Assembly: GCF_006149045.1 (NCBI RefSeq)
Contig: NZ_VBSN01000059.1
Location: 124,001-188,000 of the forward strand
From: Dyadobacter flavalbus
GTDB lineage: Bacteria; Bacteroidota; Bacteroidia; Cytophagales; Spirosomataceae
DNA: 64,000 bases
Direction of reading: 5' to 3'
The notes beneath the pieces were generated by a model. The model did no database searches. It saw nothing but the letters and a program-made list of their open reading frames with translations, and was not told the DNA's origin. This document shows positions 49,929 to 58,887 of the stretch, in pieces. Position 1 is the stretch's first letter. Each line of letters starts with the position of its first letter. The translations under genes and the position numbers were made by a program.

Positions 49929-51356
49929 ATGAAGAAATTTGCGGACATTATTACCGTTGCGCTAGGGATCCTTGCATTGTTTTTATTTCCGTGTTCAGAA
50001 ATTTCGGCACAGCAAAAGGCAGCGGAACCCAAAAAGAAATACAACATTCTCTTCATTGCTGCAGACGATTTGAACAATGATATCGGATGCTACGGGAATA
50101 CATTTGTAAAAACACCCAATATTGACAGGCTCGCGAAAATGGGCGTCCGATTTAACCGGGCATATAACCAGTTTCCGCTTTGCAGTCCCAGCCGGTCTTC
50201 ACTTCTCACGGGCCAGCGGCCGGATGTTACAGGGATTTATGAACTGCAAACCCATTTCCGCAAAAACCTTCCGGACGTTGTAACTTTGCCTCAGCTATTT
50301 AAAAACAACAATTATTATAGTGCGCGGGTCGGCAAAATTTATCACTACGGCGTGCCGGGACAAATCGGAACCGACGGGCTGGACGATCCGATTTCATGGG
50401 ACCATAAAGTAAACCCGAAAGGAAGAGATAAAACCGAAGAATCGCTTGTCAAGAATATGACGGCTGCGCGCCCGCTTGGCAGCGCGCTTGCCTACCTTGC
50501 CACAGAAGGAACTGACGACGAGCATACCGACGGCATGGTTGCCAATGAAGCCATCAAGATCATGGAGGAAAAGAAGTCAGAACCGTTCTTTCTGGCCGTT
50601 GGCTTTTACCGTCCGCATTCGCCTTATGTTGCCCCGAAAAAATACTTTGATATGTATCCCGTCGACAAGGTTCCGTTACCGAAAGAAATTGCCAATGACC
50701 TGGACGATGTTCCGGAAGCTGCCTTATTTACCAAACCGGCGCATTGGGGGCTGGGCGAACCGGAAAGAAGAGAAGCGCTGCGTGCTTACTATGCAACCAT
50801 TTCCTTTATGGATGCGCAAGTCGGCAAATTGCTGGACGCACTGGAAAAAAACAAGCTTGCAAACAACACGATTATCGTTTTCTGGAGCGATCATGGATAT
50901 AACGTCGGGCAGCACGGACAATGGATGAAGCAAAGCCTTTTTGAAAATTCGGCCCGGGTTCCGCTGATTATCTCCGTTCCGGGCGGAACAAAAGGAAAAG
51001 CTTCCGGGCGTACGGTTGAGCTGCTGGATATTTACCCGACATTGGCCGAACTTTGCGGACTTGCTCCGCCTCAAAAATTACAGGGAAAAAGCCTGGTCCC
51101 TCTGCTGAAAGATCCCGAAGCCGCCTGGGACAAACCGGCTTACACGCAGGTCAGAAGAAATCAGATTTTTGGCCGCAGCGTACGTACAGAACGTTTCAGG
51201 TATACGGAATGGGACGAAGGCAGGGCAGGAGCAGAGCTGTATGATCACCAGAAAGATCCGGATGAATTTAATAATCTGGCCAGGGAAAGTTCTTATGCAG
51301 ACACAGTAAGTGAACTGGCGATTTTATTGAAAAAGGGTTTTCCACCGGCAGAATAA
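49929..51356 (+). CDS. Secreted sulfatase (iduronate-sulfatase-like)
   Basis: 475-residue type I sulfatase with signal peptide (MKKFADIITVALGILALFLF then SEISAQ). The formylglycine motif is CSPSR with Cys85 (YNQFPLCSPSRSSLLTGQRP). Metal ligands lie in IAADDLNNDIGCYGN, and FWSDHGYNVGQHGQWMKQ carries the C-terminal site. It would remove sulfate from a glycan or other ester, with an iduronate-2-sulfatase-like layout. It follows the PstS-like gene by 177 bases. No anaerobic maturase or FGE gene is visible here. A terminator follows. Confidence 0.92.
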   Translation: MKKFADIITVALGILALFLFPCSEISAQQKAAEPKKKYNILFIAADDLNNDIGCYGNTFVKTPNIDRLAKMGVRFNRAYNQFPLCSPSRSSLLTGQRPDVTGIYELQTHFRKNLPDVVTLPQLFKNNNYYSARVGKIYHYGVPGQIGTDGLDDPISWDHKVNPKGRDKTEESLVKNMTAARPLGSALAYLATEGTDDEHTDGMVANEAIKIMEEKKSEPFFLAVGFYRPHSPYVAPKKYFDMYPVDKVPLPKEIANDLDDVPEAALFTKPAHWGLGEPERREALRAYYATISFMDAQVGKLLDALEKNKLANNTIIVFWSDHGYNVGQHGQWMKQSLFENSARVPLIISVPGGTKGKASGRTVELLDIYPTLAELCGLAPPQKLQGKSLVPLLKDPEAAWDKPAYTQVRRNQIFGRSVRTERFRYTEWDEGRAGAELYDHQKDPDEFNNLARESSYADTVSELAILLKKGFPPAE

Positions 51357-55827: not shown

Positions 55828-58800
55828 ATGAACATATCAGTACCATTTTTTCTCAGGTCTGCAGGCAGATCATTTACTCACGTTTTATTACCGCTCTTCT
55901 TTTTGTTTCTGGTTTACGGAAAAAGTTTCGGGCAGACATGGCAGCTTGCAGGCAAAGCCGGTTTTTCCACAGGTGAGGCATACTATACATCGTTGGTTCT
56001 GGATAATTCCGGTACGCCATACGTGGCTTACTCCGACGAGGGCGACAGCTATAAAGTGACTGTTATGAAATTTGACGGCTCCAAATGGTACCCGGTCGGA
56101 ACACCCGGATTTTCCATCGGCGAGACGTATTTTACATCACTTGCACTCGACAAATCCGGAATGCCTTATGTGGCATTTACGGATGCGGGCAATGACAACA
56201 AGGCTACGGTAATGAGGTTTAACGGTTCGGATTGGGAGTCGGTGGGGCCGGCTGGTTTTTCCAACGGCAATGCTTCCAGTACATCGCTGGTTCTGGACAA
56301 TAACGGCACACCTTACGTCGCTTATACGGATGCAGGAAACGGTTACAAGGCAACAGTTATGAAATTTGATGGTGAAGCCTGGGTTCCGGTGGGCATGGCG
56401 GGCTTTTCTGAAAATTATGCCGGCTATGTTTCGCTGAAACTGGATGGTTCCGGCACACCGTATGTTGCTTATTTTGATTATGGCAACAACAATAAAGCTA
56501 CCGTTATGAAGTTCAACGGTACCGATTGGGAAATAGTGGGCAAGGCTGGATTCTCTGCAGGCAGCTCACCTTATACTTCGTTGGTGCTGGACAATTCAGG
56601 CAAGCCTTATATTTCTTTTAAAGATGACGCCAACGAAAGCAAGGTGACCGTCATGCAGTTTGACGGTAACAGCTGGCAAACGGTAGGAACACCCGGCTTT
56701 TCGGAAGGAGACGTGGATTATCCTGTACTTGCGCTTGACAACGCAGGCGTACCTTATGTTGCTTATACCGAAGTGACCAATGACTACAAAGCAACGGTAA
56801 TGAAGTACAACGGAGCAGATTGGGAAACGGTAGGAGGAGCCGGGTTTTCAGCAGGTGAAGCTTACTACTTTTCACTTGTGATCAACAATTCAAACATTCC
56901 TTATGTAGCTTATTCGGATTACGGTAACGGCGGAAAGGCAACGGTCATGAAACTGGTAATGCCGGTTATGCCGGCCATTACTGCACAGCCGGCTGCCAGA
57001 ACCATTACAGGCGGGCAAGCTGCCAGCTTTTCTGTTAATGCAACGGCGGACGATGAAGCATTAACTTATCAGTGGCAGGTGAGCTACGACAACAGCAATA
57101 CTTTTACCAACGTCACCAACGGCGGCATTTACAGCGGGGCCAATCTTCCCACCCTCAATGTAATCAACGCACCGGTTTCGCTGAACGGGTATCAGTTTCG
57201 TGTACAGGTAAGCAACGGTAATGTTTTGATTTCAGATACAGCGGCATTAACCGTAAATACACCGGCTTTTGACAATGTCAGGACGTGGCAGGTAACCGGA
57301 AATGCAGGTTTTTCCAAAGGAACAGCACTGTATACCTCCCTGGCGCTGGATGCTTCCGGCACACCTTACATGGCGTATTCCGATCAGGGAAATGGCTACA
57401 AGGCAACCGTCATGAAGTTCAGCGAAAATGCATGGGGGCCGGTAGGAACACCGGGTATCTCCATTGATTCCGCAGGTTATACAACACTGGCGCTGAATGC
57501 GTCAGGTACACCGTACGTGGCATTTACCGATGCCGGAAACGATAACAAGGTCACCGTTATGCAGTATGGCGGCAGCAACTGGGAAGCAGTCGGTACACCG
57601 GGATTCTCGACCGGCTCTGCTTCCAGAACCTTGCTGGTTCTTGACAATTCAGGAATACCTTATGTGGCCTACACAGATGCAGCGGACAATAACCGGATCC
57701 ATATCATGAAGTTTGACGGTACAGCCTGGCTTCCGGTCGGCAACGCCGATTTTTCGGCAGGAAACGCCAATTATGTGTCGCTTTCTGTCAACAGCTTTGG
57801 AATGCCGTTCCTGGCTTACTCCGATGCAGCAAACGGAAGCAAGGTAACCGTTGCCAAATTTAGCGGTACCGATTGGGAAACATTGGGCAAAGCAGGCTTG
57901 TCGGCCGACAGCGCTTCTTACATCACAATGGTTCTGGACATTTCCGGCACACCTTACGTATCTTTCAAGGATTATGGAAATGACGGTAAAGTTACGGTAC
58001 TGAAATACAGCGGAACAGCGTGGACGGCAGTAGGCGCACAGGGAATCTCCGAAGGAAGCGCAGATTTTTCAACGCTTGCTCTGGACGCTTCCGGCACACC
58101 GTTTGTTGCTTACACCGAAGTAAGCAATGCATCCAAGGCAACTGTGAAAAGATTTAACGGCACAAACTGGCAAACCGTTGCTTCGGCCGCCTTTACGGCC
58201 GGAGAAGCCGATTATTTATCCATGTCAATAAACAGTACGGGCACCCCGTATGTAGCCTATGCGGATTACGGCAATAATGGAAAAGCCACGGTTCTGAGGC
58301 TGGACGGACAGCCGCTTCCGGTTACATGGATTTCATTCGAAGGCCGTTCTTCGGTGGAAGGAAATATTCTGAACTGGTCAACAGCAACGGAGGAAAATGC
58401 GGATGTCTATGTGATTGAACGTTCGGCTAATGGCAGAGTCTTTTCAGAAATCGGACGGGTGAAGTCGGTTGGGAACAGCAGTCAGGTGCAGAATTACAGG
58501 TTTATGGACAGCCAGCTTCCACAAGAAACCGCAACGCTTTATTACAGAATCAAGCAGCAGGATACAGACGGAAAGCTGGATTACACAAAAATTATAGCAA
58601 TCAGATCGAATGATTTTCTTGCGGATCATGCCATTTCTGTTTCTCCGAATCCATTCGGCAGCAGCAGCATACTTACCTTGCGCTTTGCACAGACGCCCGC
58701 AGCCGCAAAAGGTCAGGTATGGCTTACCGCAATGAACGGGCGCGAGCTTTTCCGGCATGATATTTCCGGTATCTCAGCCTCCGGCGAAGCCGTACTGAAC

Positions 58801-58887
58801 GGTTTACCGCAGCTTGCGCCGGGAATGTATCTGCTGAATGTAAGGATCGGTGAAGAAATGAAAGTGATGAAAGTGGTAAAAGAATAG
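55828..58887 (+). CDS. Secreted double seven-repeat propeller protein with T9SS sorting signal
   Basis: 1019-residue secreted protein. Residues 1-36 are a signal peptide (ending KSFGQ). Residues 37-382 hold seven 49-residue repeats of the form W..VG.AGFS.G.A...SL.LD.SGTPYVAY.D.GN..KATVMKF.G. Residues 383-486 form an Ig-like/PKD-type domain (QWQVSYDNSNTF, GYQFRVQVSNG). Residues 487 to about 830 hold a second set of seven repeats, blade-for-blade like the first. A fibronectin-like segment (LNWSTATEENADVYVIERS) and a type A T9SS sorting domain (SVSPNPFGSS to the end) follow. It is likely surface-attached or released, and may bind a ligand or polymer. No catalytic motif was seen. Confidence 0.93.
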   Translation: MNISVPFFLRSAGRSFTHVLLPLFFLFLVYGKSFGQTWQLAGKAGFSTGEAYYTSLVLDNSGTPYVAYSDEGDSYKVTVMKFDGSKWYPVGTPGFSIGETYFTSLALDKSGMPYVAFTDAGNDNKATVMRFNGSDWESVGPAGFSNGNASSTSLVLDNNGTPYVAYTDAGNGYKATVMKFDGEAWVPVGMAGFSENYAGYVSLKLDGSGTPYVAYFDYGNNNKATVMKFNGTDWEIVGKAGFSAGSSPYTSLVLDNSGKPYISFKDDANESKVTVMQFDGNSWQTVGTPGFSEGDVDYPVLALDNAGVPYVAYTEVTNDYKATVMKYNGADWETVGGAGFSAGEAYYFSLVINNSNIPYVAYSDYGNGGKATVMKLVMPVMPAITAQPAARTITGGQAASFSVNATADDEALTYQWQVSYDNSNTFTNVTNGGIYSGANLPTLNVINAPVSLNGYQFRVQVSNGNVLISDTAALTVNTPAFDNVRTWQVTGNAGFSKGTALYTSLALDASGTPYMAYSDQGNGYKATVMKFSENAWGPVGTPGISIDSAGYTTLALNASGTPYVAFTDAGNDNKVTVMQYGGSNWEAVGTPGFSTGSASRTLLVLDNSGIPYVAYTDAADNNRIHIMKFDGTAWLPVGNADFSAGNANYVSLSVNSFGMPFLAYSDAANGSKVTVAKFSGTDWETLGKAGLSADSASYITMVLDISGTPYVSFKDYGNDGKVTVLKYSGTAWTAVGAQGISEGSADFSTLALDASGTPFVAYTEVSNASKATVKRFNGTNWQTVASAAFTAGEADYLSMSINSTGTPYVAYADYGNNGKATVLRLDGQPLPVTWISFEGRSSVEGNILNWSTATEENADVYVIERSANGRVFSEIGRVKSVGNSSQVQNYRFMDSQLPQETATLYYRIKQQDTDGKLDYTKIIAIRSNDFLADHAISVSPNPFGSSSILTLRFAQTPAAAKGQVWLTAMNGRELFRHDISGISASGEAVLNGLPQLAPGMYLLNVRIGEEMKVMKVVKE

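What the first reader, a model, noticed from the sequence alone, without database searches (positions are those of the whole stretch)
55828..58887. Two homologous seven-repeat propellers around an Ig-like domain, exported by T9SS
Fourteen 49-residue repeats fall into two sets of exactly seven. Matching blades share features (the second of each has FTDAGNDNK; the fifth begins SFKD; the sixth VAYTEV; the seventh ADYGN or SDYGN), so the whole first propeller was duplicated, not single blades. A 104-residue Ig-like insert separates the two sets, and a T9SS sorting domain exports the protein. No catalytic motif is visible, so a bivalent lectin or adhesin is plausible (inference).
Basis: partly seen in the sequence, partly recalled or inferred. 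Interest (0 to 1): 0.65.

Follow-up and report, generated by a model that had tools for sequence, protein, structure and literature searches.

The report
Secreted protein with two seven-bladed propellers
A Dyadobacter bacterium makes a secreted protein that folds into two similar doughnut-shaped binding domains held apart by a spacer; it is probably a two-headed surface binding protein, and it belongs to a widespread, largely undescribed propeller family rather than being something categorically new.

Summary
ORF 55828-58887 (+, 1019 aa; Dyadobacter, nearest D. sediminis, 90%) has a Sec signal, seven 49-residue repeats (aa 38-380), a ~106-residue Ig-like linker, seven more repeats (487-829), an FN3-like segment and a T9SS type A sorting domain. 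AlphaFold2 gives propeller A at pLDDT 95.7; the full-length model shows the seven-blade pattern twice. Among homologues, 39 blade runs are exactly seven and four are fourteen, so seven is the closed unit. A and B match in register (61% vs 50%; best of 5040 pairings), in D. sediminis too, so a whole-propeller copy is supported. But it is old: third codon positions carry no register signal. A homologous Ig linker joins two seven-blade sets in another family of the order, where A and B are not in register, so the layout probably predates the A-B resemblance. Closest folds: CylK's propeller and PLL lectins, without detectable sequence kinship. No Asp-box, no His/Cys in A. dN/dS 0.05-0.07: both propellers are maintained. 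Best reading: a T9SS-exported bivalent binding protein or adhesin; ligand unknown, lectin activity untested. A truncated 92%-identical copy lies in an IS-rich contig. New variant of a known kind.

The parts
55828..55932 (+). Sec signal peptide (aa 1-35), predicted to be cut before Gln36 (SFG|QTW), as the Bacteroidetes Q-rule expects
   Evidence: read from the sequence; same site in D. sediminis (VFG|QTW); Q-rule: PMC5837995 abstract
55939..56967 (+). Propeller A: seven 49-aa blades, aa 38-380 (A1 55939-56085, A2 56086-56232, A3 56233-56379, A4 56380-56526, A5 56527-56673, A6 56674-56820, A7 56821-56967)
   Evidence: repeat table, HMM blade count, AlphaFold2 pLDDT 95.7, pTM 0.92
56968..57285 (+). 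Ig-like linker domain, aa 381-486
   Evidence: weak Pfam Ig_3 (18.2 bits, cut-off 30); homologous linker in the same place in G012 (62%) and in G769, G624, G783 (42-46%); not confidently modelled
57286..58314 (+). Propeller B: seven 49-aa blades, aa 487-829, in register with A
   Evidence: block pLDDT mostly 83-93 in the full-length model; model range 484-827 aligned to an integrin propeller, Z 27.3
58315..58632 (+). FN3-like segment before the sorting domain, aa about 830-935
   Evidence: position and resemblance to tails of other T9SS cargo of the same genome; no Pfam hit; FN3 label is inference
58639..58884 (+). T9SS type A C-terminal sorting domain, aa 938-1019
   Evidence: TIGR04183 27.2 bits, cut-off 23; 29.3 bits in the genome scan

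Best explanation
The gene encodes an exported protein with two closed seven-bladed beta-propellers separated by an Ig-like spacer. Shown by computation: the 7+Ig+7 layout, the propeller fold, the sorting signal, the T9SS translocon gene in the genome, and purifying selection on both propellers. Inferred: Sec exports it, signal peptidase exposes Gln36, the T9SS (SprA/PorV) moves it across the outer membrane and removes the C-terminal domain, and the mature protein is anchored to the surface or released. Each ring closes by an N-terminal 'velcro' strand (the WQ.. strand before blade 1 completes blade 7, whose own sequence stops before the W..VG strand). The two rings then work as two binding heads, held apart by the Ig spacer, that bind a surface polymer, most plausibly a glycan, giving avidity or cross-linking (adhesin-like). 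The two heads were made similar by an old whole-propeller copying event in the Dyadobacter lineage, within an architecture that is older still.
For: Repeats and register. AF2 propeller A pLDDT 95.7, pTM 0.92; the full-length model shows the four-strand blade pattern seven times on each side of the linker. Homologues: 39 runs of exactly 7 blades, 4 runs of 14. Sorting domain over cut-off; one SprA homologue at 2320 bits and about 100 cargo domains over the cut-off in the genome. dN/dS against D. sediminis 0.08 overall, 0.07 for A and 0.05 for B: both heads are kept. Fold neighbours: CylK propeller Z 33.9, PLL lectins Z 28-30 and Foldseek E down to 1.3e-12. Homologues with the same core carry cadherin domains plus a sorting domain, and the Ig linker matches stretches of very large proteins of relatives. 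No His or Cys in A, no Asp-box, which speaks against the common propeller hydrolases. Whole-propeller copying.
Against: No ligand, lectin motif or binding pocket was demonstrated. The best structural match of all is an enzyme domain (CylK), and the fold is shared by scaffolds, enzymes and lectins alike; a shared fold shows no function. Profile searches found no PDB relative by sequence. The Ig, FN3-like and sorting parts were modelled poorly (pLDDT mostly below 50), so spacing and valency are guesses. The tests on which lineage-specific copying rests involve fast-evolving repeats (AU p 0.04 and 0.005), and site-pattern counts are few (14 in-genome, 8 orthologous, 1 cross).
Confidence: 0.55

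Rival explanations
1. Secreted enzyme or enzyme subunit: one or both propellers act on a polysaccharide, like the propeller GH and PL families, or catalyse another reaction at a propeller face, like CylK.
For: Fold neighbours include GH BT3686, BACINT_00347, PL25 ulvan lyase, a rhamnose-glucuronate lyase and CylK; a sulfatase gene lies nearby (49929-51356).
Against: No His or Cys in A, one His in B, no Asp-box; CylK's Ca-binding N-terminal domain, which supplies a catalytic Arg (PMC8916777), is absent. The sulfatase is separated by minus-strand genes and the upstream neighbour differs in D. sediminis.
Confidence: 0.12
2. Protein-protein interaction scaffold or structural element of the cell surface or matrix, not a glycan binder.
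For: Seven-bladed propellers without catalytic residues often bind proteins; integrin, WD40 and G-beta propellers also match well.
Against: Nothing in the neighbourhood suggests a fixed partner; the gene stands alone and is patchy in the genus (7 of 48 genomes have a related propeller).
Confidence: 0.27
3. The similarity of A and B does not come from copying a whole propeller: each set was amplified from single blades and the register signal reflects shared constraints at each blade position.
For: Continuous single-blade amplification is reported as widespread in propellers (PMC9218822); A blades are almost as like each other as like B (57.7 vs 61.3%); other double-propeller proteins show little or no A-B register; third codon positions show none.
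Against: The register is the best of 5040 pairings in two species and 31/5040 in a third, and A and B of Dyadobacter sp. and D. sediminis form one clade (97/98). Most unrelated propellers of the family show no common positional signature.
Confidence: 0.2

Closest known systems
D. sediminis orthologue (NZ_VCEI01000011.1, L039)
   Same: Same length, 7+Ig+7+FN3-like+sorting domain, 90% identical, same downstream genes
   Different: Different upstream neighbour: a reprolysin-like T9SS cargo instead of the TonB-type receptor
WRAP domain of Npun_R6612 (Nostoc), described in PMC9218822
   Same: 14 blades that fold as two separate seven-bladed propellers
   Different: WD40-type, blades nearly identical and recently amplified; here blades are 45-58% alike within a set, old, and the two sets are in register
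PLL/PHL seven-bladed lectins (Photorhabdus)
   Same: Seven-bladed propeller of W-motifs with sugar sites between blades (PMC6943638); Foldseek E to 1.3e-12, VIA Z 28-30
   Different: 10-13% identity, no sequence-profile match; sugar-site tryptophans not shown here
C-terminal propeller of CylK (7fh6, 7roo)
   Same: Best structural match by VIA-align, Z 33.9, rmsd 2.6, 325 residues, 18% identity, over the whole ring
   Different: Enzyme with a Ca-binding N-terminal domain and Ca sites at the blade junctions (PMC8916777); no sequence-profile match here
Propeller-Ig-propeller-cadherin proteins of another family of the order (G769, G624, G783)
   Same: Two seven-blade sets around a homologous Ig linker, T9SS sorting domain
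   Different: A and B not in register; cadherin domains instead of the FN3-like segment (cadherin hits seen in G769 and G783; G624 not scanned)

Membership tests
T9SS type A cargo (TIGR04183) | C-terminal sorting domain over the curated cut-off | tested here: met
   27.2 bits, cut-off 23; Pfam PF18962 only 17.5 bits, cut-off 27
T9SS type A cargo (TIGR04183) | N-terminal Sec signal peptide | tested here: inconclusive
   a hydrophobic stretch and an SFG|Q site are read from the sequence, but no signal-peptide program was available
T9SS type A cargo (TIGR04183) | T9SS translocon in the same genome | tested here: met
   SprA TIGR04189 2319.8 bits, cut-off 200
Seven-bladed beta-propeller | seven four-stranded blades closing a ring | tested here: met
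   AF2 pLDDT 95.7, pTM 0.92 for A; B mostly 83-93 per block in the full model; blade counts in homologues
PLL lectin family | seven-bladed fold like PLL | tested here: met
   Foldseek E 1.3e-12, TM 0.67; VIA Z 28-30
PLL lectin family | detectable sequence homology | tested here: not met
   a profile of 18 propellers finds no PDB sequence at E up to 10
PLL lectin family | inter-blade sugar sites with Trp for CH-pi stacking, and sugar binding | not testable with these tools
   needs side-chain coordinates and binding assays
Asp-box (BNR) propellers | (S/T)-X-(D/N)-X-G-X-(T/S)-(W/F/Y) between strands 3 and 4 of a blade | tested here: not met
   no strict match in the protein; the conserved D-x-G-N-x-x-K turn lies between the second and third strand of the repeat. 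Pfam BNR_4 scores 28.0 (B) and 22.6 bits (A) at a cut-off of 27.3, without a single stretch passing alone
CylK alkylating enzymes | Ca-binding N-terminal domain supplying catalytic Arg105 | tested here: not met
   only a 37-aa signal region precedes propeller A (PMC8916777)
Highly repetitive propellers (over 60% blade identity, PMC9218822) | median blade-to-blade identity above 60% within a propeller | tested here: inconclusive
   mean, not median, computed: 57.7% within A, 44.7% within B

The most novel reading that the evidence does not exclude
A T9SS-borne propeller-Ig-propeller adhesin family in which the architecture is ancient and fixed while the blades turn over inside it, by single-blade amplification in some lineages and by copying a whole seven-blade ring onto the other in Dyadobacter, so that both heads are kept alike and binding specificity can be reset without changing the layout.
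Probability: 0.25. Interest if true: 0.55.

Novelty: new variant of a known kind. Interest (0 to 1): 0.36.

Why it matters
The blade family is common in Bacteroidota (33 of 390 genomes sampled in the order), yet no curated family here describes it well and no PDB sequence matches its profile. It offers natural single, tandem and linker-separated seven-blade rings in one family, a good test set for how propellers are copied: by single blades (the reported rule) or as whole rings (suggested here). If the binding role is confirmed, it adds a class of bivalent T9SS surface binders.

Tried and rejected
Viral contigs: no match. PDB sequence search with the whole protein gave only weak NHL/TRIM hits (E 0.003 and up); propeller profiles found nothing convincing and a blade profile only weak NHL-type matches such as PknD, E 0.01, made of sub-threshold pieces. 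Pfam DUF6087, Rax2, DUF6836 and BNR_4 hits are summed from repeats, mostly without one stretch passing alone; not taken as membership. PF26607, recalled as a PLL-like family, is not in the library. An early all-pairs register table counted insert columns as identities and was redone; a first G012 comparison used a wrongly padded blade A2, corrected. Promoter-like and terminator-like sites are no more frequent than chance. I looked for blade-specific but species-conserved columns as a ligand face; the numbers were too few to claim anything. The idea that the nearby sulfatase points to a glycan-degrading locus was dropped, as minus-strand genes lie between and the upstream neighbour is not conserved.

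Full report
What is there. The ORF at 55828-58887 (+) codes for 1019 aa. The window is from a Dyadobacter genome: the nearest named relative is D. sediminis, 90% identical over the full length. The order of parts is Sec signal (aa 1-35), seven repeats of 49 aa (38-380), an Ig-like linker (381-486), seven repeats (487-829), an FN3-like segment (about 830-935) and a T9SS type A sorting domain (938-1019; TIGR04183 27.2 bits, cut-off 23). The signal ends SFG|Q in this species and VFG|Q in D. sediminis, as expected from the Q-rule of Bacteroidetes signal peptides (PMC5837995, abstract). The genome has one SprA homologue (2320 bits) and about 100 sorting domains over the cut-off, this one among them.

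Is the sevenfold repeat real? Yes. All 14 repeats align without gaps. A blade profile finds the same 7+Ig+7 in D. sediminis and in a third species of the genus (G012), and single sets of seven in Chitinophagaceae, Prolixibacteraceae and others. Over homologous proteins from many families, runs of four or more blades number 39 with exactly seven, four with fourteen, and nine with other numbers (4, 5, 6 or 8), the latter mostly weak matches, divergent sets or fragments at a contig edge. The last blade of each set lacks the following G..W..VG strand, and the first residues of the set (WQ..G) can supply it, which is the sequence mark of a ring closed by an N-terminal strand (inference).

Fold. AlphaFold2 on propeller A with six sequences: mean pLDDT 95.7, pTM 0.92, seven blades. 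The full-length model, with only four sequences, has both propellers at block pLDDT mostly 80-93, and the linker and tail mostly below 50. In solved structures, Foldseek ranks PLL lectins first (E 1.3e-12, TM 0.67); VIA-align ranks the CylK propeller first (Z 33.9, 325 residues, 18% identity) and PLL lectins next (Z 28-30), for the single propeller and for the full model. Propeller B (484-827) also aligns to an integrin propeller (Z 27.3). No PDB sequence matches a profile of 18 propellers at E up to 10. So the fold is certain enough, while family membership stays open.

Duplication. Matched blades A1-B1 to A7-B7 are 61.3% identical; the other circular shifts give 48.6-53.0%; the true pairing is the best of 5040, also in D. 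sediminis (1/5040), and 31/5040 in G012. Mean identity within A is 57.7%, within B 44.7%.

History. Propeller-Ig-propeller also occurs in three genomes of another family of the order (G769, G624, G783). Their Ig linker is homologous to the window's (42-46%; phmmer E 8e-25 or better, in a search of a six-sequence set) and sits at the same place; the exit linker FDN.R.WQ is shared by the window, G012 and G783 and only loosely by the other two. Their A and B are not in register (2579, 3398 and 4893 of 5040). In a tree, A and B of Dyadobacter sp. plus D. sediminis form one clade (97/98), and a tree in which all A sets, or all B sets, are one clade is rejected (p 0.007 and 0.006). An earlier tree with other outgroups gave only 71/94 for that clade, and p 0.04 and 0.005 for the A and B clades within the genus. 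Site patterns point to a mixed history: 14 in-genome, 8 orthologous, 1 cross; 14 against 8 is not a significant difference. I read this as an old architecture in which the blades keep turning over, with one whole-ring copying or conversion event in the Dyadobacter lineage. Independent assembly around a common kind of Ig domain is not excluded; the linker also matches stretches of giant proteins of relatives. An unrelated, FN3-linked 7+7 protein in another genome of the phylum (G227) and four tandem fourteen-blade proteins show that doubling recurs.

Function. Both rings are under strong purifying selection (dN/dS 0.07 and 0.05). A has no His or Cys, B one His, and there is no Asp-box, so the usual signatures of propeller hydrolases are missing; CylK's first domain is absent. 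Homologues with the same core carry cadherin domains and a sorting domain. A type A sorting domain leads to static anchoring or release (PMC12618676). The most likely role is therefore a two-headed extracellular binding protein, adhesin-like, with a glycan as the most plausible ligand; that last step is inference only.

Surroundings. Upstream lie a sulfatase, an outer-membrane receptor-like protein with a carboxypeptidase-regulatory domain on the minus strand, and a small unknown ORF; downstream an unknown membrane-type protein on the minus strand, a sigma-54 response regulator and a DUF1501 protein. The downstream genes are the same in D. sediminis, the upstream neighbour is not. The gene appears to stand alone.

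A second, broken copy. Contig C27 of the same genome holds a 1.8-kb piece, 92% identical in DNA, from within blade A1 to within blade B4. Its left end abuts an inverted histidine-kinase-like gene and its right end an IS3-like remnant in an IS-rich stretch. It is nearer to the resident gene (dS 0.28) than to D. sediminis (dS 0.69), although in the protein tree its A set groups with D. sediminis (99/95), so its origin is unsettled.

Verdict.

Noticed in passing
L052:9449-11344 (G000 contig C27, about 69.5-71.35 kb): Truncated 92%-identical second copy of the gene (blade A1 to blade B4), abutting an inverted histidine-kinase-like gene on one side and an IS3-like remnant on the other; closer to the resident gene at synonymous sites, closer to D. 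sediminis in the protein tree.
   Followed up: partly
G000 C50:243131-243349, C31:69108-69326, C21:55474-55692: Three T9SS sorting-domain hits with the same score (40 bits) in open frames of 222 aa on three contigs: perhaps a repeated element that carries a sorting domain.
   Followed up: no
L093 (genome G227), minus-strand 3105-aa ORF: A 3105-aa protein with two seven-blade sets joined by an FN3-like instead of an Ig domain, next to another propeller gene: an apparently independent double propeller.
   Followed up: partly
L142, L138, L145, L149: Four proteins with fourteen blades in direct tandem, without a linker and without A-B register.
   Followed up: partly
PDB 5hx0: A Dyadobacter fermentans protein of unknown function, Dfer_1899, is among the structural matches (TM 0.54); its relation was not examined.
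   Followed up: no
L039:1051-4245: In D. sediminis the gene just upstream is a 1064-aa reprolysin-like T9SS cargo; this window has an outer-membrane receptor-like gene there.
   Followed up: no
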